Positions 30,155 through 57,209 of a stretch of DNA of 64,000 bases are shown here, piece by piece. Position 1 is the first letter of the stretch, and each line of letters opens with the position of its first letter. The position numbers and the translations under genes were made by a program. Origin of the DNA: Astropecten irregularis (lineage: Eukaryota > Echinodermata > Asteroidea > Paxillosida > Astropectinidae); NCBI GenBank assembly GCA_963971285.1, contig OZ020263.1:3782001-3846000 (forward strand). Direction: 5' to 3'. The notes beneath the pieces are model-generated. The model searched no databases. It saw nothing but the letters and a program-made list of their open reading frames with translations, and was not told where the DNA came from.

Positions 30155-30285
30155 TATCATTTTGTCCATGAAAATCACTGGGCACCATGCAAATGTCCAG
30201 CATGCAATTTAAATATTAATTGTATCCCAATTGAATTGACACCTTAGTCTGGGTACTGCACAGACATACATTAAAGGCTAATTAT

Positions 30286-31053
30286 CCCGATTGACACCCT
30301 AGTCTTCATCGAGATAATATCCCGATCCACACCCTAGTCTTCATCGAGATAATATCCCGATCCACATCCTAGTCTTCATTGAGATAATATCCCGATCCAT
30401 ACCCTAGTCTTCATCGAGATAATATCCCGATCCACACCCTAGTCTTCATCGAGATAATATCCCGATCCACACCCTAGTCTTCATCGAGATAATATCCCGA
30501 TCCACACCCTAGTCTTCATCGAGATAATATCCCGATCCACACCCTAGTCTTCATTGAGATAATATCCCGATCCACACCCTAGTCTTCATTGAGATAATAT
30601 CCCGATCCACACCCTAGTCTTCATTGAGATAATATCCCGATCCACACCCTAGTCTTCATTGAGATAATATCCCGATCCACACCCTAGTCTTCATTGAGAT
30701 AATATCCCGATCCAAACCCTTGTCTTCATTGAGATAATATCCCGATCCACACCCTAGTCTTCATCGAGATAATATCCCGATCCACACCCTAGTCTTCATC
30801 GAGATAATATCCCGATCCACACCCTAGTCTTCATCGACATAATATCCCGATCCACACCCTAGTCTTCATCGACATAATATCCCGATCCACACCCTAGTCT
30901 TCATTGAGATAATATCCCGATCCACACCCTAGTCTTCATTGAGATAATATCCCGATCCACACCCTAGTCTTCATCGAGATAATATCCCGATCCACACCCT
31001 AGTCTTCATCGACATAATATCCCGATCCACACCCTAGTCTTCATTGAGATAAT
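30286..31053. repeat. Homogeneous 35-bp satellite-like array, about 22 copies
   Basis: The unit is CGATCCACACCCTAGTCTTC then ATCGAGATAATATCC. Copies are nearly identical; most variation is C/T or G/C at two positions (ATCGAG/ATTGAG, GAGAT/GACAT) that cluster in runs of neighbouring copies. Each unit has an AGATAA word. No ORF spans the array. Confidence 0.9.
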
Positions 31054-32006
31054 ACTAGAAATGTCCCAATGGAAAGGAATATTTAGTTGTTGTTTTTTTG
31101 TTTACTAACACACAGCAGGGGAAGCAGCTGGTGTTTGGAGATGAATTTCACACTCTCACGGCCATGGACGGAGCCTGACCATAAGAAACCACCCCCCCCC
31201 CCCCTCCACCACGGTACGCGGACAAGAATAGTACACTGCACACATCCATATGCTAATCGGGAGTCCATGATCCTAGATGCGTTATCTCATTAGCATGATA
31301 TTGATGAACTCACAGCGCATATGAGAATGCTCATTATGTCCTCCTTTGGTCTGATGGGTAGATCCATGATCAGCTCGTAGTATCCAAGGTTTATTAACCG
31401 CAATCCATTTAAAGAATTGTTTAAATGGGCTTAACGAGAGAAAACAGGGGAACACTACATGTATGAATGTATTTCATTTCATTTAATAGCATTTAGCGAT
31501 GAAGTTAAATACGTATCTAGCTTGATATGGTTTGAAATATGTACAGTGTAGTTTGTCCCAGTGTAGTTTGTACTACATTTAGTAGGCTTTCCACATACCG
31601 GTATTGTACAAGTACTGTAAAGTGTACATGTGTGCACACGTACATGTACATTTAAACATTGGGTGTCAAATATTGCTTTGAGCGTATCAAGTGCTTGGGA
31701 TTGGCCTGTCTACATTCAGTATATGAAGTCAAGTAGAATCTTTTAAGCATACTGTACATCATGTGCATAATATGGAACCGTGGGATGTCACGTTCACACT
31801 GAAATGCATGAGTGCTTGGGTACAAGGTCTACCTGTGTAATTCATGTTGTTTGATGCATATACTGCGGTATTGTACATGTACATGTATGTACATGTATGT
31901 CTACAGAACATGTACTACAGAATATGTTATCGCCAATATTACACAATTCGCCCCAAACTGCTAGACAGACACAATCTTGCAGTTAAAGCTTTATTATTGC
32001 ACTGAT

Positions 32007-40768: not shown

Positions 40769-40862
40769 ATGGTCTGCGAATGTTGCAAAAACCCGTATTG
40801 TGAGTTTCTATGGAGACATTACACCCCGATAGTTCGCATCTGGGGCATGGGAACTGCTGCAG
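40769..40862 (+). CDS. TMEM72: TMEM72-like exon 1 (start codon, N-terminus, start of helix 1)
   Basis: The ATG at 40769 opens 31 codons plus one base, ending GCTGCAG|GTTTGC. The N-terminus is cysteine-rich (C4, C5 or C6 region, C11), followed by the basic/aromatic WRHYTP and the start of the first helix (IVRIWGMGTAA). The start was chosen because it is the only ATG in this frame before the helix and the exon phase fits exon 2. About 40 bases upstream a very short upstream ORF (ATGAAAATGAATGGATAG) would lie in the leader if transcription starts before it. The divergent promoter of the minus-strand gene lies about 310 bases upstream. Confidence 0.75.
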
Positions 40863-43800
40863 GTTTGCCTTTTGAATTAAAAACAAAAATTATGAATTCT
40901 TAATTAAATTTAAAGTTCAGTTGCCTTATTCAATCATACTAAACTTAGGGCCTAGCTGTTAGTGTTACTGTTAAAGTTATTATTATTTGCCAAAAACACC
41001 CGTTAAACTCACTTTTCAGATATGCTACCCCAATTGTGCACATCTGAGATTGAAGTTCGTTATCCAAATAAGTTAACTCTTTACTAGGGCCTGTTTGTTT
41101 AACATGTTTAATGCACAGGATCACAAATCTTGCGGATCCGGATCCCATTTTAGCATACCCTGGCCCTAGCCCTGCATAGGAGGTGGATCCCTAAATCTGG
41201 GATCCCTTGCGTTTAACAAACAGGCCCTTGTAGTAGTTAAACTGTTAAAGGATATAACGTTTTTTTCTGTAATGTGCGTCAGTGAAATTCCTCCCAAGAA
41301 TGTTAACATGCTTTTTTTTAGCAATTACCCTTTTATACCGACGTAGATGGTTTTACTTTATTTGCATAAAAATCTCCCCACGATGACTTTCACTTTGACG
41401 TGGACTGTTCTGTTTAATTGCATTCCATGGGCCCTATCTGTATTATGTTGCTATTATTTTGCTTGTTTGTTTTGTTGATTTTCTTTCTGGGCAGCTTTCT
41501 GGGCAGTTGCAATCACAGCATTACAGACTCAAGATTTCTTTGGAATCTACTTTGTGTAAGTGCAACCTGGTTTGGGATTTTCTGGCACCTTTTACTAAAG
41601 AGTCAGCTCTCTGGGTAAAACAGTGTCTAAAACAAGCCTCAAATTCAGCGATTTTCAAGTAGGCCTGCTTACTCTGCACTTGCCAAGTCACCAAAAAAAG
41701 GCACACATCTGATTGAAATCAACGTAACCGCTTTTTAAAGTTCTTTGCCAGATAGAAAAATAAATCTTTGAGCCAATTTCAAAAACATTGAGTAATTTAT
41801 CAAATGAAGCCCAGAGCTTGCTTAATTAGATATCCCTTTTGTTCTCCCCTTTTTAATTTCATTTTTATTCCTTAAGTTCTACTGAAAAGAAGGTGAAATT
41901 CATTTGAATTGAAATCAATACAAGTAAATTGTAATATACAAGTATAATATGAATTGAAATCAGACAGCTTTGATAATCTTTTTATAAACGTCATCTACCA
42001 GCAGATCACTAACATCTCAAAATCCACCTATTTCTGGTAAGCTGATAAGTGTTGATAAGCTTGTAAGTGTTAAGTGGTAAGCGTTAATTTCAAGGCCTTT
42101 AGTAGAAAGTGCCAGAGGATCAGATTGTGTGAATTATTCACTCAAATATTGCGGAAATTGATACTTACGCACTTATACATTACAACATGATAAGAAAGTA
42201 CTCAATACAGAACATAGAAGTTACTGAACATTATTATTGTGCAGAAAAGCTCATCAAAAAGTTTAGCATCAGTTTTGAAAACTCCAAAGAATTTGATTTC
42301 TATTTTTTTTCTGTAAATGAAAGCTTCAATTTTACATTGTTGTCTATTTCTTTGAAAAGTGAACAAAGAAAATTGACTGGAGCGGGATTTGAACCGCCGA
42401 CTTTCTGAATACCGCACAGGCGCTCTACCAACTGAGCCATCCAGCCCTACGTTGGTGGTGTCCCAATAGTCAATTCTCTTTGATCTTTTGGCAGTCAGGA
42501 GCCGTGATACCACGCACAAAATGCCATATCCCAGGGATCATTTCATAGATACACGCAGCAATGTTGCATCCTGAGAACGGTACATGGGGGATCACTCAAA
42601 GAGGAGACAGCTGTTTAATTAATATAATCATCAAATAACCACAAGGGAAACTGACTGGAATTAAAGTTGATTAATGTTGTCTATTTCAGGGTCGTTGCGT
42701 CAATCATAACCATACTGGAGGTGGTATTCTTCTTTGAACCCTGTTTTGATAAGTGCTGCTCGTAAGTATTCAGAAGTTCAGAGCTCGCTGCACCTTGTGG
42801 TTGTTTATATCTCTTGTGGGATGAGAGGTGGATATGAAAGATATCCCATACATGTGCATTTTTACTCGACATTTCAGACAGCACAGACCCTTTCACGGAT
42901 AGCCAGATGTTGTGAAAAAGATTTTAGTGAAGACTATCCTATCCTCCACAACAAATATTGTAGTGAAGAAGTTCCTTGAGGTTCAAAAGATTTAAAGTCG
43001 GTGGTGAAGTTATCACTGATGACTGATAACAAAGGTAGTATCATACTTTGGTAACATACGGAAACAGAAATCTTCACAGATTTACATACAACTTACAGGG
43101 TATAAAGATGACGATGGTAGAAACATACTGTTAAAGTTGTTCTGCCTGAAATGCTGTATTTATCCAGAAAATTTCAGTGTAAAACCAATGACACACAAAT
43201 TTTTGATTTTTTTAAAGATAAAAATAACGGTGAAGAGATTATATGAAAAAAACTACTTTGGGCGTTTTTCACTGTTTTCTTCAAGAGTGGGCACCGTATG
43301 GGACTGGGAATTTCACAGATGACTGTTACTGTATCTTCCTTGATACTTCTGCTCATGAATCTGCATTTCATTGACAAAACCAAAGTATGATATTACCACT
43401 AACCCTAACCCTCCTCAATCCTCCAAAATTCTTCTGGTAGTTTTGGAGGATTTCGGAGGATTCAGGATATAATGTCATTTTCAAGTGAGGACCACTTAAG
43501 GAGTTGCAAGGATTCAGGATAAACGCATTTTTTGAGGTATGGCCACCGAAGGATTCTTCAGGATTCAGGTACCGCTCATTTTTAGTATAAGTGAGATCAC
43601 TGGAGGATTATGGAGGATTCAGGATGAACGCAGTTTTTAAAGTGTGACCATTGGAGGATTGTGGAGGATTCAGGATGGTACTCAGTAAAATGCCCCTAGG
43701 GGGTTAGGGCTAATGCATTTTGACACAGTCTGATACCAAGATACAGCCTTCAGTAGGCCTAAGTCCCTGCGCTAACTTTATTTCCTGGCTAGCCCACCGG

Positions 43801-46800
43801 GCCAGCTTACTTCAGATTTTACTCGCCCGTTTAGATTTTTACTAGTCCATACATATGTATGTTGATCCATACCTTAACATGTAGGTTCTTATTGTTTATT
43901 ACTAGCCCACCGGGCATCCAATGAAGTGAATCTAGCTAGCTCAGAGTGGTTTTTGCTGGACATTGTACGCCGGGCTTGTACTATTTCGAGCTATGCTAAC
44001 TAGCGTGGCCATCAAAGTGACTGATGTACAGCGCAGGGTACAAGCAAACTAGTCCGACGGCCATTCACGATAGTCCCTGCCAAAACTTACCTCTAAACTG
44101 GAATCTTCCTCTTCTTTCTCCCTCCTTCTCCTCCCTAGGCCAGAATCCTGTTGCGGGAAGACATGGACGATCATCTCATGGCTGGACAACTGGAAGCGAA
44201 GTGCCATCTACATCGCGCTGTCAATCATCTGCTATTTGGACCACAAGAATGTCTGGGCCATCGTCGCAGGTTGGTCCAAACTGTCCACCATACATTTCTT
44301 ACCTTCTTAGTAAAGATCTGCCGTGCCACTTGCTTTGACGCTGCTCATGCTAATGTCATTACTGTGTCATTATTCTTTGTTTTATTTCACAGTTGTAAAC
44401 GTGAGACCCTGTAGAGAGTCGCGTCTTAACACCTGCCTATATTGTCAGTCATTTAAAAAAAATTCCTTCGTTGCACTGTGGTGCTAAATTTGTGTGGCTC
44501 AAGCTAGTTAACGTCTGCAAGTGCTGCGACTCTGATCTTAACATTTCCAGATGAAGTTTCTTCCAAGGGTGTTAAGGTCATAAATCTGCCCCCCCAAAAA
44601 ATCATCTCTAGTATTGTGGGACTTCGATGGAGTTGGACACAGGTCTGTTCAGCCATGTCTTTGTGGTCTGTTACGGAGGGTTGGTGATTCAACTGGCTCC
44701 AATTAGTCCCAACAGATATGCTTCTGCGAATACTGCAAAGTGGTTGTGGGTGATGAAGTTTAGAAGATGCATGCAGGAAAGTTACTAGCCCCAAATGTCC
44801 CATGTGGGTTTAAGGGTTAATTAACAAGCACGTGTGTACTAATGAGAGGGCAGTTAGCATGCCTGGCATGGGAGGCACTTGAAGCGAGACTAATCACAAA
44901 TCCATCTCGGACAAAACTCTTGCCCTCTAAAATACAACTCCAATGACTGAATCATGATGATATTCTTTGCCCATGAATCTGCATTTCTTTGACAAAAAAA
45001 CCAAAGTATGAAATTACCAATCAGAAATCTGTGTCAGAATGATCAGAGGAATCGGTGTTCGCATGTGAATGTACAATCACCATCTCACATGTTACAATTG
45101 TTTTTGTTTCTGTTCTATGAAACCCCTCAACATTCCCCCTTGCCCGGACTAACCCCTTTCGTCCCCCTCCTTGTTCCCCTCCAACCCTTTCCCTTCATCT
45201 TCCTCCCGTCTTTTGCTCACATCTCAGGCAGTCTGTTAGCCTTGCATGCCGTGCTGTGTGCATTGCTTGTCTGTGGTTCGTGCCAGGGTCAGAGCAGAGA
45301 GCAGAGGGACGTGGAACGGGACAAATACCAACCTCTCTCTACTACTAACATCTGATCCTTTGTTCGTGTTTCTCTCGCCCCCGCCCGCCCGCCCGCCCCT
45401 TTACGTCCGATGGATGTCAAGTTGATGGTGCTGCTAATTTCACCTGCCATGTTTGTTTTGTTTGAAAGGTACTATCATACTTTGGTAGCATACCAAAACA
45501 GAAATCTTCACAGATTTACCTATAACTTACAGGGTATAAAGATGGTGATGGTAGAAACATACCTTTGAAATTCTTCTGCCTGAAATGCTGTATTTATTCA
45601 GAGAAGAGTCAAACCATTGACCAAAATTATTGTTGATCTTTTTAAAGATCAAAAATTTAAAAGAAAAGACTCTCTGAAATTCTCTGAAATTTCACTGTTT
45701 TCTCAAGAACTGGGCACCGTATGGGACTGAAATCTTCACAGATGACTGTTACTGTATCTTCCTTGATATGTTTGCCCATGGATCTGTATTCCTTTGATAA
45801 AAACCAAAGTATGATACTACCTTTAAACTGTGTTCTGTATTATTAACTTCGGCTAGGGCTATGACTGTGACTGTTTGTATTAAGTTTATTTACTCAGGAC
45901 ACCTCATCATCATAAGCCTCTTATTGGACATTTAATGATGCAGCCTTAGCCCTTAGCCCTATCCGTAGCTGTACTGTACCTGCCATTTTGAACTCGGCTG
46001 ACCAGTAAAAGATCTGTACAACCAATGATATTTGTTTTTCTGTTTGTTTAACCTGTTTAAACGTTTTTTTGAAATTTGAAAATTCATCTCCAAGTCCGAT
46101 CAAATTCAGCTGAATTTCCCAATCTTAACTTTGATGCAGAGTTGTAAAAAAGAATTTCTTTCCAGCACACAAAAGAAATAAATTCGTAATGCGAAATGGA
46201 AAAAAAAATTCATTGGATCGTATATATGACAAAGGGAATCCAAACTATTTTTTTTATTCATCAATTTTACCATCCATATTTTATGTTTTAATATTTTCAG
46301 AGGTTTAGCAAGGGACAATAACTACCTTCTCTTCTTAATCTTTAATATTGCTTCTCTGCAACATTGGTGCTTTGAATACTAATATTACTGATACAATCAA
46401 GATATTTAATTTTTTTCAATTTGTTCTTCCATTTTTTAATTGTTTCATGAAATTATGTTTCTCACATGTCAAAAATAAATGTACATTTATGTATGTAATA
46501 TACTGCATTGCAAACTGCCCATCAACCAAAATAATGATTTAAAACATAATAAATACTTGGAGTTAAGAGGGCCTGACAATCAAACTATGCGCTTTGACCA
46601 ATTGGAGGACGCCTTTTAATCAGGTGACCACGGAAGCCTTGGTCAAACTCGGTCAAATGCGATGTGTAAAACACAGTGGGCGGGGCTTAAAGGTAGTATC
46701 ATACATTGGTTTTTGTCAAAGAAATACAGATTTATGGGCAAAAATATCAAGACAGATACAGAAACAGTCATCTGTGAAAATTTCAGTCCCATACGGTGCC

Positions 46801-48777
46801 CACTTTTTGAGGAAACAGTGAAAAACGGCCACAGTATTTCTTATGTCTTTTCTCTTTTATTTTAAAAGATCAAAACGATTTTTGGCAGTTGTTTTACTCA
46901 TTTCTGGATAAATACACCATTTCAGGCGGAACATTTTTAACGTTTTCTACCAGCACAATCTTCATACCCTGTAAGTTATACGTATATCTGTGAACATTTC
47001 TGTTTTGGTCTCTTACCAAAGTATGATACTACCTTTAAGAGCAAAGCCGGAACGGTCCGGCATAGCATTACCCCTTTTAAAAAAGTCTGAACCTGTAACA
47101 TTATATATTCTAGAGTAGAATCCATATTCTTTGTAAATAAGATCTTATTTATTGAAATAATCATGTTTTTTTTTTCAGAAGGAAATACATGAATTAATTA
47201 GGTTGCAATACATTCAGAGCTCTGCCACACGAGCATGTTATTTACATATAATTTACATAGTATTTGCGTAATTGTCAATCAGCCAATAAGGGACAGTTAT
47301 TTTTTTCACTGACTCAGAAACAAGACTGATGGTCTCTGTACGGTATAAATAGGACTGGAAGGGGTACCTAGTACACAGCAAGGCAATTTAAATGCCTTCA
47401 ATACACTTTTTAGTATTCTAAGTACTCTAAGTACACTTTTGCATCAACATTTTTACAAAGCAACAACAGGAATTAATTTAATTTAGACATTTTGTTTCCA
47501 TTTCATTTTACAATTATTTATTTGGATGGTAGAGATTAGACCTCTGTACAGTACTTGTAAAGGTTTGAGGGTCAAATACAGTTGTTGAATATGCTTGTTG
47601 TTTTTATCGCCATTTTGAAGTTTTTAAAGTTCACATTGTTTGTGTGAAATAAAATTCTTTAAACAATCTTGAATTACTAATCAAGTACATACTTCTTTAT
47701 TTCTGATCTTTAATATTGCCTTATTTTTGCCTTGTAAAATGTAACAAATGGAGCCCAAGAACCCAACCCAGCCCAAGGGGCATTTTCCAAACCTTGACAT
47801 CAGCTCCGGCTCCGGCTCCGGCTCTGGCTTCAGCTCTGTCATCCAAATGCTGAAAAGAGTCTACTTCTCAATTACCCGTAGCAAAAAGCCTCTACTTTGA
47901 TATCCGTTATCAATTGGATGCACGAAATGGCCTCGTATAGATATTATGGTTGTGTGCCTTGATAATTGATTTTCATTTCCATTTTCCATTTCTAATGTAT
48001 GATCATTGTGTGTGAAAGCCACTGTGTAGAAAACACTGAAGCAATAATTTATTGGTATTGCTTACTATTCAGCACTGAGTTAGCTAGTGCCATAAAACTA
48101 GGTCAGCCAATTTCATAGAGCTGCTTAAGCACCAAAATTTGTTTAAGCACCAAAAACATTGGTTAATAAAATCAGTATACCAGCCAAAACTCCTTGTGAA
48201 TGTTATGCACAGCAAACAATGGCCGAATGCAAGAAAAAGCAGTAAATTCCACTTGAGAATTTGGTTGGTAATTCTGTTTGATCAAGGAAGACTTTTCATG
48301 CTTAAGCAAAATTTGTGCTGAAGCAGCTCTATGAAATTGACCCCAACCTCTTCGTAATCATGCCAGAACACTCCTCTCCATTGTTTCTCTCATGTGGCGG
48401 GGAGACTGTGAGTAGATAGAGAGTAGGCTATTAACCTACATCATCACCCTCAATCAATCAATTAATCAACAGGTGTGGTTCTAGACACCTTGGCCATCTT
48501 GTACCTCCTCCGTACCTACCAGCAAGAGGCCCTCCGGCATGCGGCCAGTGAGCCTGCTCCTCCGCAGGCCCCAGCTGCTGCCTCGGCCGGCAAGTACACC
48601 CGCTTCGACACCCAGCAGAGCACCAAGAAGAAGAAGGAGACGGTAGATTCGGCATCAGCCTCCAGGGAGGAGGAGTACGACGGAGAAGAGGAGGAATCCT
48701 CCTCCAAGAATCCATTTGGGGATTTTGACGACGACGCCGATCCAGAAGGAGACGCTGGATTATCGCGGTATCCATAG
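40769..48777 (+). CDS. TMEM72: TMEM72-like four-pass membrane protein, long isoform (5 exons, 220 aa)
   Basis: Rebuilt by hand from splice sites and phase: exons 40769-40862, 41495-41555, 42690-42761, 44139-44269 and 48473-48777, totalling 663 nt (220 codons plus TAG). Every junction is GT-AG and phases agree throughout. The protein starts MVCECCKNPYCEF and has hydrophobic segments at about 19-40, 46-68, 95-110 and 113-132. A cysteine cluster (C70, C74, C75, C80, C81) lies in the loop between helices 2 and 3. The tail (133-220) has an Ala/Pro-rich part, a KYTRF stretch (160-164), KKKK (171-174), an acidic run, and NPF at 199-201. The layout and the pattern around helices 1-2 resemble vertebrate TMEM72 (recalled, not searched), which is longer, about 275 aa. 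The molecular function of that family is not established to my knowledge. The gene structure is much surer than the family name. Confidence 0.78.
41086..41228. mobile_element. MITE with AGGGCCTGTTTGTTTAAC ends, copy 1 (intron 1 of the TMEM72-like gene)
   Basis: AGGGCCTGTTTGTTTAAC at the left and GTTTAACAAACAGGCCCT at the right, with GATCC-rich interior. Confidence 0.75.
41495..41555 (+). CDS. TMEM72: TMEM72-like exon 2 (end of helix 1, start of helix 2)
   Basis: A long T-rich tract precedes two AG acceptors 12 nt apart (exon starting at 41495 or 41507), both in phase. The donor is CTTTGT|GTAAGT. It encodes the stretch FWAVAITALQTQDFFGIYF, which joins helix 1 to helix 2. Use of the second acceptor would drop residues 32-35 (A-F-W-A) from the first helix without a frameshift. 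Confidence 0.75.
42362..42486 (-). repeat. tRNA-derived element (SINE-like or tRNA pseudogene) with flanking inverted repeats
   Basis: Minus strand 42446-42375 folds like a 72-nt tRNA. The acceptor stem GGCTGGA/TCCAGTC is intact (one G-T pair), the D stem GCTC/GAGC is perfect, the A box is TGGCTCAGTTGG and the B box GGTTCAAATCC. The anticodon stem and T stem each have two mismatches, and position 33 is C, not T, so a working tRNA is unlikely. Imperfect inverted repeats (CAAAGAAAATTGACT and its partner AGTCAATTCTCTTTG) enclose it. Confidence 0.6.
42690..42761 (+). CDS. TMEM72: TMEM72-like exon 3 (helix 2 and cysteine loop)
   Basis: The acceptor is CTATTTCAG and the donor TGCTC|GTAAGT. It encodes VVASIITILEVVFFFEP followed by CFDKCC: the end of the second helix and the first part of the cysteine-rich loop. 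72 nt, entering and leaving in the same phase. A TTAA MITE sits in the following intron at 43030-43400. Confidence 0.8.
43030..43400. mobile_element. TTAA MITE, copy 7, intron 3 of the TMEM72-like gene
   Basis: AAAGGTAGTATCATACTTTG at the left and GTATGATATTACCA at the right; the border TTAA words are mutated. Confidence 0.75.
43416..43690. repeat. Degenerate tandem repeat, GGAGGATTCAGGAT unit
   Basis: Four or five units of roughly 50-60 bp, each with GGAGGATT(C/G) followed by CAGGAT and GAACGCA or related words. It is preceded by two telomere-like CTAACC words, which are too few to mean anything. Confidence 0.7.
43783..43998. repeat. Dispersed repeat, copy 2 (inverse orientation)
   Basis: Runs from CTGGCTAGCCCACCGGGCC to GTACTATTTCGAGC, the complement of 20384-20600. 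It ends about 140 bp before exon 4 of the TMEM72-like gene. Confidence 0.7.
44139..44269 (+). CDS. TMEM72: TMEM72-like exon 4 (loop and helix 3), common splice donor for both last exons
   Basis: The acceptor follows a strong pyrimidine tract (CTCCTCCCTAG) and the donor is GTCGCAG|GTTGGT. It encodes the CCGKTWTIISWLDNWKRS segment, helix 3 (IYIALSIICYL) and DHKNVWAIVA, leaving one base. That base completes a glycine codon with either downstream last exon (45228 or 48473). Confidence 0.82.
44957..45020. mobile_element. TTAA MITE fragment, copy 8
   Basis: Only the right terminal 60 bases remain (GCCCATGAATCTGCATTTC, CCAAAGTATGAAATTACC). It lies about 200 bp upstream of the alternative last exon. 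Confidence 0.65.
45228..45355 (+). CDS. TMEM72: TMEM72-like alternative last exon, short form (helix 4 plus 25-residue tail)
   Basis: A very strong acceptor (a long C/T run, then CACATCTCAG) opens an exon whose phase fits exon 4. It encodes GSLLALHAVLCALLVCG, a hydrophobic fourth helix, then SCQGQSREQRDVERDKYQPL and STTNI, then TGA, giving a 161-residue protein. The KY motif and the Thr/Ser-rich end resemble the KYTRF...T region of the long last exon, so the two could be a diverged exon duplication. YQPL fits Y-x-x-Phi. Splicing to this exon excludes the 48473 exon because each carries its own stop codon. Confidence 0.65.
45463..45827. mobile_element. TTAA MITE, copy 9, about 110 bp after the short last exon
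   Basis: AAAGGTACTATCATACTTTG at the left, GATACTACCTTTAA at the right; near full length. If the short isoform reads through past 45355, its 3' UTR would carry this hairpin. Confidence 0.75.
46687..47038. mobile_element. TTAA MITE, copy 10 (complete)
   Basis: TTAAAGGTAGTATCATACAT at the left, GATACTACCTTTAA at the right. Confidence 0.75.
47270..47660 (+). promoter_or_regulatory. Promoter-like block with CCAAT, TATA and polyadenylation signal (possible solo LTR)
   Basis: CCAAT in CAGCCAATAAGG near 47281, the strong TATA sequence GTATAAATAGG near 47344, and AATAAA near 47649 follow in the order and spacing of a retroelement LTR or a very short transcription unit. No long ORF lies between. Clear TG...CA ends with a target duplication were not found. 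It lies in the last intron of the TMEM72-like gene. Confidence 0.3.
48103..48345. mobile_element. CAATTTCATAGAGCTGCTTAAGC MITE, copy 4, before the long last exon
   Basis: GTCAGCCAATTTCATAGAGC at the left, AGCTCTATGAAATTGACCCC at the right; it ends about 130 bp before the 48473 exon. Confidence 0.8.
48473..48777 (+). CDS. TMEM72: TMEM72-like last exon, long form (helix 4 plus 88-residue acidic tail)
   Basis: The acceptor is AATCAACAG. In frame it gives VVLDTLAILYLLRTYQQEA, a fourth helix, then an Ala/Pro-rich linker, KYTRF, a lysine run, a Ser/Glu-rich acidic stretch with EEEE, and KNPFGDFDDD, ending SRYP and TAG. The codons are GC-rich compared with the flanking DNA. NPF followed by acidic residues fits an EH-domain binding motif, and Y-x-x-F fits a tyrosine sorting signal; both are inferences from short motifs. 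A 245-bp MITE lies just upstream (48103-48345). Confidence 0.8.
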
Positions 48778-49977
48778 TAACAATCTGGGATGAGAAGGTA
48801 CTATATTGTTTGTTTTGTCTCGGAATTGTCGAGAGTTTCACCATATTGAGCAGGAACATTTGTCAAGTCAGGCTTGGGACCTGACTGTCTCCACGAAATG
48901 GGTCTCTGCCGTCTTGAGGTCAAAAAGATGACCCAATTTTTAGATTAACTGAACTTCTAAGGCTCTTCCTTAAGTTTCTTTCTGAAAGAGCTTCGCAGCT
49001 TTTCTTTAGGAAGAAAACTTTGTATGGCTAGCCAGGTATAAACCTATAGGTTTGGACTTGCAATGGTCAAAGCTGGTCTCAGCAGACCAAGTACTGACCA
49101 CTGCGTATATTCCAACATACTGCCTTGACCAATTTTGACCTTATGGCTAGATAAAGCTTATTTCAGTGAGAAACTGCAAAAGTCAACTTTCAAACAGGGT
49201 GAAACTTTTGGTCCAAGAGTTGGCCCAGAGTATTAATTTCATCCATTGATTGAGGTGTATCTTTTCAGAAAAACATCTGTTTGACCTTTCAGTGTGTTTT
49301 GAATGAAAGGAAAAAAAATATTGGGAGAAACATAATTGAGGGAATGTATTTAAAACGGATATTTGTGTCACAATATTAACAAAAACATTAAAATAAAAAA
49401 TAATTCTGATGACCACAACTATAAAGTGATTTTGAAAATAGCCTTCATTCTTTTTCATGCTCCGATCAAAAAGCTAGGTCGTACAGTCATTGATTTCGTA
49501 CGGTTTTGAAATAAACTGACAATAATTTTACCTATTTTGTGGGTTTTGTTTGGCTGAGGTATAAAATTAAAGATTGTAGGTGTTCTAACCTTGTAAAATT
49601 GGAATGTATATATTTTTTTTACTATTAAACCAGGCTGAAATTGGACATACATTTTTTTTTACGATTTAAGGCTGTTTATGTTTGACAATACAGTGTTTGA
49701 AATCAATTGTGTTATCATCTATTATTTTTTCAGTACCCTCAACATGAACAAGGGTTTTTATGCAGTCATTACCATATTTTCCAAAATTCTGTATGCATGT
49801 TTTGTTTAAAGTCAGACAAAATGGTGAAAATGTTTACATTCAAGTCATAAATACTATTTTTATTATTTTCGTTTGGTAGGTGATTGTTTGGTGTAGAAAA
49901 TATGTAACCAAAACTAACAAGCTGTAGGCACAACTATCGCAGTGTTGTGGATAGCTTTTATTTAACTCTATGAGTAA
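48778..49977 (+). other. Probable 3' UTR and downstream flank of the TMEM72-like gene
   Basis: No credible ORF. AT-rich sequence follows the stop codon. AATAAA occurs near 49509 and again near 50541, after the 49979-50407 inverted-repeat element. Which one ends the transcript cannot be told from sequence. Confidence 0.35.
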
Positions 49978-49978
49978 T

Positions 49979-50407
49979 AGACCGATCCAGTAGGCCACGC
50001 CCACCATAGCAACGGCCAAGCAACGACGCACACGCGCGCGCGTAACGTGTCACAATCGCAAACACGTGTTGCACGCCCATCACCGAAAGCATCTCTATGG
50101 GACTTTGGTTTTGGAAAAGGTCACAAATGTACGTTTCGTCTCTTACCAGGCCATCGAGAGTCAGAATTACAACGAAAATATAAACGCCATCAATTTGTAG
50201 CAGAAAGATACTGTACTTGTGAAGTTGTGCTGCATTTGCAGAGGACGGTATTTATTGTTTTTCCAGTTCGTAAACGTAAACACTGCTGTAATCAATACTG
50301 CGATCTCCAGCATGAGATCACCAAAATGGCTGCTGCAATTGGTGATCCGATTTTCGCGGTTGTGATTGGTCAATGCAAAATAGGGCGGGGCTTAATGGAT
50401 CGGTCTC
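49979..50407. mobile_element. 429-bp element with AGACCGATCCA ends
   Basis: The left AGACCGATCCAGTAGGCCAC then GCCC is matched inverted by GGGCGGGGCTTAATGGATCG then GTCT at the right, with two or three mismatches in about 24. The interior has a CGCACACGCGCGCG run. It lies in the 3' flank of the TMEM72-like gene. Confidence 0.65.
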
Positions 50408-50639: not shown

Positions 50640-50850
50640 GGAAACACCGTCTCATTTTTTATTTTTGCAAGATCAAACATTTTTTGGGGTTTGGTTTTAC
50701 TCCTTTTTTTTGGGATGAATACAGAATTTGAGGCAGAAAAATTTTCACTGTATGTTTCTACCATTTTACCTTCTTTATACCCTTTAAGTTATTCATAAAT
50801 CTGTGATAATTTCTGTTTTGGTTGGTTCTACCAATGTTGTACATGCCCAT
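50640..50850. mobile_element. TTAA MITE fragment, copy 11 (degraded)
   Basis: Family interior words (GTATGTTTCTACCAT, CTTTATACCCT, AAGTTATTCATAAATCTGTG) without recognisable ends. Confidence 0.55.
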
Positions 50851-52724: not shown

Positions 52725-55700
52725 CTGGTGGTGAAGCAGACAAACAAAAATATACTCAGTATTATCAGTCTGTTATGAAATTGGAAATGTCTAAGCCAGT
52801 CACGCTATAAAGGAATCATGCAAATAAAAGGCAACAAACTACGAATGCAGCTAGAACAGTTTTCATAAAGACAAACAAACAGTGTGCCCCACCAACAAAG
52901 AAACCCCCCGAAAACCCTGTTTTGAGTTGTGAACTTGTGGCGTCATCCCAGTGAAAACACCCCCAATATTATGGACTTACCGCAGAGTGCCATTGCTTTG
53001 TCAAAATCTCTTCGGAGGATTGCAAGGACTTTCTTTACTCCCTCTGCACCCTAAAAAGATTTATGAAAATACAATAATGACTTATCCAAAATGACATTCT
53101 ATATGTTGTTTTGAGACAAAAACGTCACTTTTCATCAAACTCTTTGTTCATACACTTTTAGAGACTGAGGCAGTTTATTTTGCCAAATCCAAATTTGAGG
53201 GCTTTTTGGTGTCAGAGATTAAGATTGAGAACAGACTCATACAAAAGAACAGTTAGTTTCATTAACGGAATAACATAACTTGGACGGAAAATAAGAAAAA
53301 TTGCAACATACGTCATAAGTGAGACCCCAGAGGGCTGGTCGGCCGATGAAGACGGCTCTGGCTCCCAAAGCGATGGCTTTAAGAACATCAGTTCCCCAGC
53401 GTATTCCACCATCCAGATACACCTCAACATTGGATCCTTGAACGGCATTGACCACCTCTTGTAAGGCATCGATCTGTTTGGAGAAAGGAATCATTATTTC
53501 TACGTGACGGTGGCAAGAAATGGTCAAAGAAATGTTTTTGCTTTCATTAATCACATTCGAAAAGACAAGAACGAGATTGGGTATATTTTTTGTCCTTTGA
53601 ATAAAATTTGAAGATATTCAGATTCCGTAATGCTAATTTTGGAACTTAAAGGTACTATCATACTTTGGTTTTTGTCAAAGAAATACAGATTCATGGGTAC
53701 AAATATCAAGACAGATACAGTAACAGTCATCTGTGAAAATTTCAGTCCCATACGGTGCCCACTTTTTGAGAAAATCGTGAAAAACGGCCACATTATTTCT
53801 TAAGTCTTTTCTCTTTTATTTTTGATCTTTTAAAAGATCAAACAGATTTTCGGTCGTTGTTGTACTAATTTCTGGATAAATACAGCACTTCAGGCGGAAA
53901 AATTTGAACGGTAGGTTTCTACCAGCACCATCTTCATACCCTGAAAGTTATACGTAAATCTGTGAAAATTTCTGTTTTGGTCTCTTACCAAAGTATGATA
54001 CTACCTTTAAGAATTTTTTGAGCCCAGTGGTTATATTGTTCTCAGGAATGCAAATAGGCAACCGTCCGGCATGGAGCAAGCTCAGCACTGGTGCCATGGC
54101 AGCTGATGAGGAGAGGTACATCGCCAAAGCCATGAGGAAGCGTGAACTACGGAAGACAGGAGTCACAAATATCTCCAGCAACCCACCTACCCACTGGTGC
54201 TCTACTTGAGGGAGGGGCTTCAGGGCTCAGATAGGCCTTTCCAGTCATCTTTGAGCTCACGCTAGATTGAAATCCCACTAGTCAGGAACCTGGCCATATT
54301 CGACTACGAATGGCAAACAACATTAGGTAATTATTTACCGTGGCTGGTACTCCGTCTATTTGCCTGCCACCATGATTAGACACCAGGATACCAGCTACGC
54401 CACGCCTCACTGCTTCCCTTGCAGCCTCCGCTGTGAAGAGGGGAAAAACAATCTCACACTGAACTATTTACATAAATAGAGCAAGTGGTCATGATAAGTC
54501 ATAATGTAACAGTCCCAAGCTTCTTCTCTCACCTGTGAGAATACCCTTGAGCACGATCGGTAAATCGGTCATGTTCCGTAACCAAGTGATGTCATCCCAC
54601 GTCACTGATGGATCAAGGGTAACATCGCCTCTCACAAACGGAACACCACCTGGAATCTGTACCTGTGGGAACCTGAGATGAATGAGAGAGGACTCATGTT
54701 CTGTCACCTAACTCTCAGATTTACAGAATGATTTTGCTTTTTATTTCAAAACCATGGCCCATCTTTCTCATGTAAACAGAAAGAGGCTCAAATAGCTATT
54801 AAAAGCAGTGGTGGTCAGTCTTTGCTTACTCAAGATGAGAAGCAATTGCATCGGTTTTGTGGATGTGGAACCTCCTGGAACCCAAAACTGGCTGATCAAC
54901 TGTCACGACCAGGCCCTTGAAGCCCGCCTTCTCTGCTCGCCTCACCAATGACAATGTGTATGGCTCTGGCTTCTTCAAGTTGCGCACAAAGTTGACCTGT
55001 TGGAATAGTAAGGTTCCAACAGGAACTGAAGCGGCAACTTCCTCGATAGACTTGTTGGCCAACATGCTCAGGACCATGGCCGATCCGATGCTAGCAGCAC
55101 CTATGAAGCAATGACATTGAATCCAGGTGAAAACTAACTTACTTCTAAATACATTTTCCATTTACAGAAAAATGACCGACCAAGATTTCGAACCTTGAAC
55201 CTACAGAATGAGTGAATGACCTACCAGTGCACTAGCATGAGTACTGTACCCAGCTCTCTGTCGGTGGGGTCCGGTTTTAATAGTTCTTCCATTTTGGGGT
55301 TGGATAGTCCCAAACTGACAATGGTGCAGTTTGATCCGAACCGTCTTCAAACACAGTACTCTAGGATGTTCAAGCAGTATGCACTTGGATATGATTCAAG
55401 GCTAAAAAATATGTCTGATGGAAATTGAAGGTGTTGGTCGTGGGCTTTACACTCACATGGAAAGATAAAGGCATTATAAGGCCCCGTCCTTACCTTTTGC
55501 AGTGGCTATTTCTCCGTCCGGGTGGATGGCGCCATGCAAGGCAGTGGGAGACACCATAACAGGGAACTCAATGCGATGACCAAAGACAGTAGTGGACATG
55601 TCTCTCGTAGACACATCCTGCAAGAGCCGTGGTCTTAGTCTGTACCTATAAACAGGCAAGAAGAGTTGGAGATGAGGCTATTTTATACCTGTTAGTTGGT

Positions 55701-56371
55701 AGCTCTATGGTTGGACTCAAATGCCTTCCAACTGAGACTGTTGAATTTGACAATTGAATTGTGGAGACAAAGCAGAGATGAAGTAGAGATCAGCCCATAG
55801 TATGACCCAGAAAGAACAGCCTCAAAGAGCTTCTTGTTTTTTTCTTTTTGTTTAGGGGACATGTGATCAGGTAGAAACTGAAAAACTCAATTAACAGAGT
55901 GGTCTGGAGTGGGTTAGAACCCAGGCCAGTGATGGAAGGCCGGGAAAATAAAACTCTACCAGGTGGTTCCTATCCACGAAATAACAATATGGAAAGGGTA
56001 TGGGGTTTATAATACAAAATGTCAGGCATGTAATGTACTGACTACTCAGGGAGGCAGGAATGCTAGGGGCCTACGTCTTGGAAGAACACTCTTTTTTGTG
56101 GGGGGGGGGGGGCGTGGGATCAGGTACAAACTGAAAAACTCAATTCCCAGGTTAGTCTAGAGTGGGGGTTGAGCCCAGGCTAGTGGTGGAAGGCCATGAA
56201 AATAAGACTATTAAATGTTGACCTTTCAAATGCCAGCTGGTTGTCTCTCAGAGTCTGTTCGGCTCCTGCTCCCATTCTGAAGTAGTTCCACCAAGTCTCT
56301 GGCAAATGTTGCTTGCAGTAAAGCTCAAAGTCCGCTAGGTAGAATGGTTCCGAGTCAGATGCAGTGGCCAT
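52660..56371 (-). CDS. HAO1: FMN-dependent 2-hydroxyacid oxidase (glycolate oxidase/HAO family), 8 exons, 366 aa
   Basis: Coding exons: 56371-56223, 55645-55494, 55100-54830, 54672-54533, 54430-54339, 53473-53312, 53050-52981 and 52724-52660 (1101 nt, 366 codons plus TAA). All introns are GT-AG and all phases agree. The family oxidises glycolate and other 2-hydroxyacids with O2 to 2-oxoacids and H2O2, usually in peroxisomes. Family residues present: Y30 (NYF), T167 (VTVD), K233 (VLKGI), H257 and R260 (SNHGGRQ), D289 (DGGIRWGTD), and GRP at 312-314. Odd points: the usual Q-L-Y motif reads Q-Q-V (134-136), and the C-terminus is SKP instead of SKL/SKI/SRL. The length is close to human HAO1 (370 aa). 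HAO1 versus HAO2 orthology cannot be settled here. Confidence 0.9.
52981..53050 (-). CDS. HAO1: HAO exon 7 (shared)
   Basis: The acceptor is TCTTTTTAG and the donor CTCTGCG|GTAAGT. It encodes [19 protein letters not shown] and MALC, the C-terminal helix. Confidence 0.88.
53312..53473 (-). CDS. HAO1: HAO exon 6 (shared), FMN phosphate-binding exon
   Basis: The acceptor is CCAAACAG and the donor TATGAC|GTATGT; 54 codons in phase 0. It encodes [18 protein letters not shown] and [15 protein letters not shown], the two glycine-rich segments that bind the FMN phosphate in this family. Confidence 0.92.
53645..54010. mobile_element. TTAA MITE, copy 12, HAO intron 5
   Basis: TTAAAGGTACTATCATACTT at the left, GATACTACCTTTAA at the right, with TTAA at both borders. 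It ends 35 bases before the acceptor of the plus-strand exon-like ORF at 54046. Confidence 0.8.
54046..54209 (+). CDS. Exon-like ORF on the opposite strand inside HAO intron 5
   Basis: Directly after a plus-strand acceptor (TATTGTTCTCAG, ending at 54045) an ORF with codon-like composition runs [20 protein letters not shown], then [18 protein letters not shown] and ends NPPTHWCST with TGA at 54207-54209. It is charged and helical in the middle with no membrane segment. I do not recognise it. Its entry phase (two bases before ATG) would also fit exon 4 of the TMEM72-like gene, but it would not supply a fourth helix. It could equally be the last exon of a separate gene starting after 48.8 kb, or begin at its own ATG. 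Confidence 0.4.
54339..54430 (-). CDS. HAO1: HAO exon 5 (shared), catalytic His-Arg exon
   Basis: The acceptor is CTCTTCACAG and the donor GCCACG|GTAAAT. It encodes [19 protein letters not shown] and [12 protein letters not shown]257 is the family's catalytic base and R260 the substrate-carboxylate arginine. Confidence 0.92.
54533..54672 (-). CDS. HAO1: HAO exon 4 (shared)
   Basis: The acceptor is TCATCTCAG and the donor CTCACAG|GTGAGA. It encodes the loop after strand 4 and [20 protein letters not shown], with the flavin-binding lysine K233. The loop is a few residues shorter than in human HAO1. Confidence 0.9.
54830..55100 (-). CDS. HAO1: HAO exon 3 (shared)
   Basis: The acceptor is GCTTCATAG and the donor CATCTTGA|GTAAGC. 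It encodes residues 101-190, including [13 protein letters not shown], the altered FQQVNF motif where the family has Q-L-Y, and [11 protein letters not shown]. It is present only once, although exons 1 and 2 are doubled. Confidence 0.9.
55494..55645 (-). CDS. HAO1: HAO exon 2, copy A
   Basis: The acceptor is CTGTTTATAG and the donor GCAAAAG|GTAAGG. It encodes [18 protein letters not shown], then the [19 protein letters not shown] and [10 protein letters not shown] segments, the first strands of the TIM barrel. This is the exon with 5 of 6 differences from copy B silent. Confidence 0.9.
56223..56371 (-). CDS. HAO1: HAO exon 1, copy A (coding part)
   Basis: The ATG at 56371 is followed by [19 protein letters not shown]; the exon ends TTTGAAAG|GTCAAC in phase 2. 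It holds the N-terminal helix and the Y30 flavin-site tyrosine within [12 protein letters not shown]. The leader part of this exon starts at 56410 after the acceptor TTCGTTGCAG. The start matches the length of the family N-terminus. Confidence 0.88.
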
Positions 56372-57209
56372 GGTATCAAAATGGGCTCAAGTTAACACGA
56401 ACCTCAAGATCTGCAACGAAAACAAAGTATAGGGGCCTACGTACACCGCCACGTTCAGTTTACACAATGCATGGTGATCAGGACACCATGTATTAATATT
56501 GTCATACATATGTGTATTGTTCCCTTTCAACTTTGTTTCCCCTCAAAAAGTTGTCAACACAGACTGCTCTGCCGAACTCATTATGTAATAAAAAAAATTT
56601 GATTGGAAAAAAAATGTAAAAAAAAAAATTGATGGGACGTACACAGTTCATGTAGTTTAAACTGGGTTTCGACACCAAATCTTATGGTATTTTGATTGGC
56701 AACTGCAAAGCCTTTTCAAATAATGGGAAAAATTTCAAATTTTCCGTTGGTGAGTACCTCTTCAACCCTTCATCAGAGGATGAAAGGCTTTGAGAGCGTT
56801 TCACTGAGCACGGACGCCGACCACCAAAATGCCGGCCGGCCACAACAGCTAAAAAGCGAACTTGCAGAATTCACGACAGAATGCAGGCTCAATTAGCATT
56901 TTCAATTAAAAAAACACACACACAAACATGATGATTGGGATTTGCTGCCATCAGGGGTCATATCGATCATGATAACTGCCAGAAGCAGTCGCAAGGAGGC
57001 TTTCATGGCAGCAAGAACCAACAAGTCACCATGGTTCTCCCACACGCCCCATCATCCCCGTGCCCTACAGATAACCGACCTGCACTAACTACTGCACCTA
57101 GCTCGAGAGGGTTTTTTTAAACGTCAAAACTTTTAAAACTGTTGACATCGTCCTCCAAAATTGAACTTGTACCAAAAAGCACGCACAAATAATACTCTTC
57201 ATCACTTAC

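What the first reader, a model, noticed from the sequence alone, without database searches (positions are those of the whole stretch)
44139..48777. Two mutually exclusive last exons swap the fourth membrane helix and the whole cytoplasmic tail
Exon 4 leaves one base, and two downstream exons (45228-45355 and 48473-48777) both start in the matching phase after strong acceptors. Both begin with a glycine plus a hydrophobic helix and both end in their own stop. One tail is 25 residues with YQPL; the other is 88 residues with KYTRF, a lysine run, an acidic region and NPF. A switch between two trafficking signals on the same three-helix core is a neat arrangement that I do not know to be described for this family. 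The shared KY-x-x-hydrophobic and Thr-rich words hint that one exon arose from the other.
Basis: partly seen in the sequence, partly recalled or inferred. Interest (0 to 1): 0.72.

Follow-up and report, generated by a model that had tools for sequence, protein, structure and literature searches.

The report
TMEM72 gene with two candidate endings
An animal gene for a small four-helix membrane protein (TMEM72, a relative of the fly Flower protein) seems to have two possible last exons that would give it different fourth helices and tails; the second one is likely but unproven without RNA data.

Summary
The exon arithmetic is correct. Four exons (40769-44269) encode a TMEM72 core, and exon 4 leaves one base. 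Both 45228-45355 (A, 42 aa) and 48473-48777 (B, 101 aa) complete a Gly and run to their own stop. B is the family-type ending: Pfam TMEM72 rises from 68.9 to 84.4 bits, and its helix resembles that of a paralog in the same genome. A is probable but weaker. It adds 6.3 bits, more than 60 of 60 shuffled helices and 11 of 11 chance tails. The 40 nt before it are the most pyrimidine-rich of 206 intron AGs, though its acceptor score ranks only sixth of them. It has no canonical poly(A) signal for 822 nt, and no RNA or relatives could be examined. A helix, tail and stop alone are expected about once per intron of this size by chance. Exon duplication is not supported. The 'signal switch' is doubtful: both tails carry Y-x-x-hydrophobic, and the long charged NPF tail and most of helix 4 are what differ. 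C-terminal splicing is known in the related Flower family, and a paralog here passes both family cut-offs. If real, this is a new variant of a known kind.

The parts
40769..40862 (+). TMEM72 exon 1 (start codon, N-terminal tail, start of helix 1)
   Evidence: Open from ATG, donor CAG|GTTTGC, phase fits exon 2
41495..41555 (+). TMEM72 exon 2 (helix 1 to helix 2)
   Evidence: Acceptor GGGCAG, donor GTAAGT, phase fit; part of the PF16054 match
42690..42761 (+). TMEM72 exon 3 (helix 2, FEPCFDKCC)
   Evidence: Acceptor TTTCAG, donor GTAAGT, phase fit; part of the PF16054 match
44139..44269 (+). TMEM72 exon 4 (helix 3 and the first residues of helix 4); leaves one base
   Evidence: PF16054 genome hit here; acceptor score 9.28; donor CAG|GTTGGT, score 1.38
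45228..45355 (+). Candidate proximal last exon A: rest of helix 4, short tail with DKYQPLSTTNI, TGA stop
   Evidence: Acceptor 5.6, sixth of 206 in the intron; highest 40-nt pyrimidine content of 206; PF16054 68.9 to 75.2 bits, above 60 of 60 shuffles and 11 of 11 chance tails; one match in the genome, itself
48473..48777 (+). Distal last exon B: rest of helix 4, long tail with KYTRF, KKKK, acidic run, NPF, TAG stop
   Evidence: PF16054 68.9 to 84.4 bits; helix resembles that of the paralog, p 0.0001; one hit in the genome, itself
45456..45826 (+). Dispersed repeat copy starting about 100 nt after the stop of A; would lie in the 3' UTR of A
   Evidence: Repeat families D1, D2, I1, I3

Best explanation
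The locus is a TMEM72 gene, in the same superfamily as Flower/CACFD1. Its pre-mRNA most likely ends in one of two alternative last exons. Splicing exon 4 to the distal exon B gives the family-type protein with a long charged tail. Use of the proximal exon A, with its better acceptor and a downstream poly(A) site, gives a short-tailed protein whose helix 4 is completed by a different sequence. Both products keep the three-helix core and a tail tyrosine word. I expect the choice to change how long the protein stays at the surface or where it goes, through loss or gain of the basic/acidic/NPF extension, as C-terminal isoforms are reported to matter in Flower. Shown: the sequence geometry, the family, and the better-than-shuffle fit of A. 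Inferred: that A is transcribed, that it has a poly(A) site, and every step about trafficking.
For: PF16054: core 68.9, core+A 75.2, core+B 84.4 bits, cut-off 29. A beats 10 of 10 shuffled helices at full length (68.3-73.9) and 50 of 50 as fragments (E 1.8e-8 against a best of 2.5e-8). It also beats 10 of 10 chance hydrophobic tails cut to 42 aa or less (66.5-73.3) and a chance tail in the same intron at 44643 (67.9). Acceptor of A: top 1.0% in the window; its 40-nt pyrimidine content is reached by no other of 206 intron AGs. Among 32 of 6,876 AGs with a comparable tail, only A itself has an acceptor score within 1 of A's or above. The stretch matches only itself in the genome. A paralog on another contig has the same five-exon layout with a phase-1 intron before the last exon and passes PF16054 (61.3) and PF10233 Flower (33.0, cut-off 29.2). 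Flower: C-terminal isoforms, and uptake of human isoform 4 slowed when the N- and C-tail AP-2 motifs are mutated together (passages of PMC10366549); fly Ubi but not LoseA or LoseB, which differ only at the C terminus, rescued endocytosis in mouse T cells (passages of PMC11655906).
Against: No RNA and no second species could be examined. The helix-tail-stop pattern alone is expected about once in this intron. Five of 206 intron AGs score higher as acceptors. The G+C of A (0.531) is that of its surroundings (0.508 before, 0.536 after), so it marks no exon. The margin over the best shuffle is small, and two of the ten chance tails overlap. No AATAAA or ATTAAA lies within 822 nt after A, and a dispersed repeat intervenes; the five AATAAA in the rest of the intron are near what I would expect by chance (own estimate, about four). 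A is not detectably similar to B, and its likeness to the paralog's last exon (PLSTT) is only p 0.02-0.03. For trafficking: the C-terminal motif of mouse Flower was found helpful but not essential (PMC11655906), and the paralog's tail has no Tyr.
Confidence: 0.58

Rival explanations
1. A is a chance open stretch (pseudo-exon) in a pyrimidine-rich part of a 4.2-kb intron. The gene has one ending, B.
Against: Highest 40-nt pyrimidine content of 206 AGs and better profile fit than 60 of 60 shuffles and 11 of 11 chance tails.
Confidence: 0.31
2. A is a real exon, but a poison or regulatory one: its stop lowers the amount of full-length TMEM72, or it is spliced on to B through a donor after the stop, and no stable short protein is made.
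For: Better proximal acceptor against the weak acceptor of B; no clear poly(A) site for A. Donors of 1.22 at 45544 and 1.15 at 45808 score close to that of exon 4 (1.38).
Against: The helix of A fits the family profile, which a poison exon need not. Both donors lie inside the dispersed repeat.
Confidence: 0.09
3. Transcripts ending after A exist, but the two protein forms do not differ in function; the proximal ending is tolerated noise.
For: Both products keep the core and a tyrosine word; nothing here shows a difference in function.
Against: The long charged tail is lost, and C-terminal isoforms of fly Flower behaved differently in mouse T cells (PMC11655906, passages).
Confidence: 0.02

Closest known systems
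TMEM72 (Pfam PF16054)
   Same: Core and both endings match the family profile above its cut-off. Overexpressed human TMEM72 was seen mainly at the cell membrane in passages of PMC13147424; a passage of PMC7019016 instead cites a mitochondrial location.
   Different: I saw no description of two last exons (listing of 25 of 116 papers; passages of two papers). A FEBS J 2023 paper on ER-export signals of TMEM72 was seen only as a title in a reference list and is not held.
Flower / CACFD1 (Pfam PF10233, Cg6151-P)
   Same: Small four-helix proteins with C-terminal isoforms by alternative splicing: fly Ubi, LoseA and LoseB differ only from residue 147; human isoforms 1/2 against 3/4 differ at the C terminus. 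N- and C-tail Y-x-x-hydrophobic words (YRWL, YARI) act in internalisation.
   Different: The window protein stays under the PF10233 cut-off (17.4-22.0 against 29.2). For the fly isoforms, modelling is said to leave the four-helix core unchanged by the tails (PMC10366549); here most of helix 4 changes too. A separate Flower exon lies on another contig of this genome (31.7 bits).
TMEM72/Flower-like paralog on C8 of the same genome
   Same: Same five-exon layout and phases; last exon starts with Gly plus the second part of helix 4; over the cut-off of both families.
   Different: One last exon read; about 9.1 kb downstream gave no other strong candidate, but that scan was tuned to A-like helices and would miss endings like B or the paralog's own.

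Membership tests
TMEM72 (PF16054) | Profile score over the curated cut-off of 29 bits | tested here: met
   75.2 (A form) and 84.4 bits (B form)
TMEM72 (PF16054) | Four membrane helices | tested here: inconclusive
   Hydropathy gives four peaks for A and three for B, where the windows of helices 3 and 4 overlap; no structure prediction run
Flower / CACFD1 (PF10233) | Profile score over the curated cut-off of 29.2 bits | tested here: not met
   17.4, 18.6 and 22.0 bits for core, A form and B form; so not filed as Flower
Flower / CACFD1 (PF10233) | Tyrosine sorting word in the C-terminal tail | tested here: met
   YQPL in A, YTRF in B; common by chance, so weak evidence
Flower / CACFD1 (PF10233) | C-terminal isoforms seen in transcripts | not testable with these tools
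   No RNA data
Alternative last exons | Both exons fit the same donor phase and end in their own stop | tested here: met
Alternative last exons | Each has its own poly(A) site | tested here: inconclusive
   B: ATTAAA/AATAAA from 49387; A: none before 46177
Exon pair made by tandem exon duplication | The two exons are similar beyond chance | tested here: not met
   Alignment p 0.84 local, 0.91 global; helix-only p 0.15

The most novel reading that the evidence does not exclude
TMEM72 is a second branch of the Flower superfamily that, like Flower, runs a C-terminal isoform code. In this animal the choice of last exon replaces most of helix 4 as well as the tail, so that it alters the membrane core and not only the sorting tail.
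Probability: 0.25. Interest if true: 0.6.

Novelty: new variant of a known kind. Interest (0 to 1): 0.4.

Why it matters
Flower isoforms are a much-debated system (endocytosis, cell competition), and what the C-terminal variants do is contested. If the little-studied relative TMEM72 also splices its C terminus, this gives an independent case. The paralog that passes both family cut-offs links TMEM72 to Flower; no paper in the searched library holds both names TMEM72 and CACFD1.

Tried and rejected
Exon duplication (A from B) was not supported by alignment against shuffles. Repeat-borne origin of A: not supported, as 45100-45460 has one match in the genome, itself (that search skips very common words). 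A donor that would make A an internal exon: only two in 45240-46200 score over 1 (1.22, 1.15), both inside the repeat; the real donors of this gene score -0.44 to 2.04 on the same matrix, so this is not excluded. Solved structures: 0 matches up to E 1. Further last exons: a loose scan listed tails at 44643, 45240 (inside A) and 46309 in the intron and at 50201, 50605 and 56482 downstream; only 44643 was followed up (low pyrimidine; no profile gain). That scan does not list B or the paralog's own last exon, so it cannot exclude other endings. PF16054 also gave a weak hit on C14 (15.4 bits, under the cut-off) and PF10233 weak hits on C17 and C20, not pursued. The last exons of the Flower gene on C24 were not recognised in the 14.4 kb read, so its ending could not be compared. 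Literature searches. A structure prediction was not run, because its rule takes only proteins the DNA gives letter for letter, and a spliced protein is not such.

Full report
What is there. The window lies in an animal genome of 475.7 Mb (G000, contig C28). I do not know the species, and no relatives are held for it. On the + strand, exons 40769-40862, 41495-41555, 42690-42761 and 44139-44269 splice in phase to a 119-residue core. The core can be completed by exon A (45228-45355, 161 aa in all) or exon B (48473-48777, 220 aa in all). Pfam names the gene: PF16054 TMEM72, core 68.9, A form 75.2, B form 84.4 bits against a cut-off of 29. The Flower family PF10233 also appears, but under its cut-off (17.4-22.0 against 29.2).

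B is the family-type ending. It adds 15.5 bits. Its helix aligns, ungapped, with that of a paralog on contig C8 better than nearly all of 20,000 shuffles (p 0.0001); over the whole exon products the likeness is weaker (p 0.06). Its acceptor is weak and pyrimidine-poor.

Is A real? The bare pattern is not enough. Of 6,876 AGs on both strands, 32 (A included) are followed by a phase-matched tail of 35 aa or more with a hydrophobic start, so about one is expected among the 206 AGs of intron 4. B's exon part would not pass this threshold. A looser scan lists tails at 44643 and 46309 as well. What sets A apart: (i) its acceptor score is in the top 1.0% of the window, though sixth of 206 in the intron, and the 40 nt before it have the highest pyrimidine content of those 206; (ii) its helix fits the TMEM72 profile better than 10 of 10 shuffled full-length forms, 50 of 50 shuffled fragments (E 1.8e-8 against 2.5e-8 for the best), 10 of 10 chance tails (two of them overlap) and the tail at 44643; (iii) its stretch matches only itself in the genome. 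Against it: its G+C is that of its flanks, the first canonical poly(A) hexamer is 822 nt after the stop and beyond a dispersed repeat, the margin over shuffles is small, and neither RNA nor relatives were available. My acceptor and donor matrices use recalled frequencies.

The paralog and the Flower link. PF16054 also points to one exon on C8, by itself under the cut-off (18.7 bits). Five exons with the same phases give a 174-residue protein that passes both PF16054 (61.3) and PF10233 (33.0). A third gene, on C24, has an exon over the Flower cut-off (31.7 bits; the match runs over the exon's end into one stop), read out on the minus strand. TMEM72 and Flower thus look like branches of one superfamily. 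No paper in the searched library holds both TMEM72 and CACFD1.

How it would work. In Flower, C-terminal isoforms arise by splicing: fly isoforms are identical up to residue 146, human isoforms differ at the C terminus. N- and C-tail AP-2 motifs (YRWL, YARI) promote uptake: mutating both slowed internalisation of human isoform 4. In mouse T cells the N-terminal motif was essential and the C-terminal one only helpful (passages of PMC10366549 and PMC11655906). By analogy, core+A and core+B would share the core, N-terminal tyrosine words (YCEF, YTPI, seen in the sequence) and a tail tyrosine word (YQPL, YTRF). They would differ in the long extension of B (lysine run, acidic run, NPF) and in most of helix 4. 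The junction lies inside helix 4 (peaks 117-135 and 114-132, junction after 119). So the switch, if it exists, is less 'signal one against signal two' than 'short tail against long tail, with a different helix'. That the tyrosine words act as signals is untested; such words occur in 6 of 31 control tails, and the paralog's tail has none. That NPF and acidic runs are sorting words is recalled knowledge.

Evolution. A and B do not align beyond chance. A and the paralog's last exon share PLSTT and reach only p 0.02-0.03. The exon-duplication idea is therefore not supported; the two endings may be unrelated, or too far diverged to tell.

Verdict. A is more likely real than not (0.58 for the best explanation as a whole, lowered from a first 0.62 after the acceptor rank and flank G+C were added). 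If real, it is a new variant of C-terminal splicing already known in a sister family.

Noticed in passing
window 54285-56386, - strand: Exons of an FMN-dependent dehydrogenase (PF01070, best E 3.4e-17), a neighbour of TMEM72 on the other strand: 6 of 58 scanned open frames match (58 of 374 frames were scanned), 4 of them located.
   Followed up: partly
window 42374-42446, - strand: tRNA-like sequence in intron 2: Rfam tRNA 39.3 bits, not called by ARAGORN.
   Followed up: no
window 43031-43384, 45456-45826, 46687-47045, around 50707-50822: Copies of a dispersed repeat, 83-91% alike; the copies at 45456 and 46687 are inverted to each other between exons A and B and could pair in the pre-mRNA.
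   Followed up: partly
window about 30260-31060: Tandem array of a unit of roughly 35 bases containing 'cacaccctagtcttcat', seen by eye.
   Followed up: no
G000 C8:9261240-9263995 (L005, L006): Paralog that scores over the cut-offs of both TMEM72 and Flower, a possible bridge between the two families.
   Followed up: partly
window 48461-48862, - strand: 134-codon open frame antisense to exon B, probably a by-product of its high G+C.
   Followed up: no
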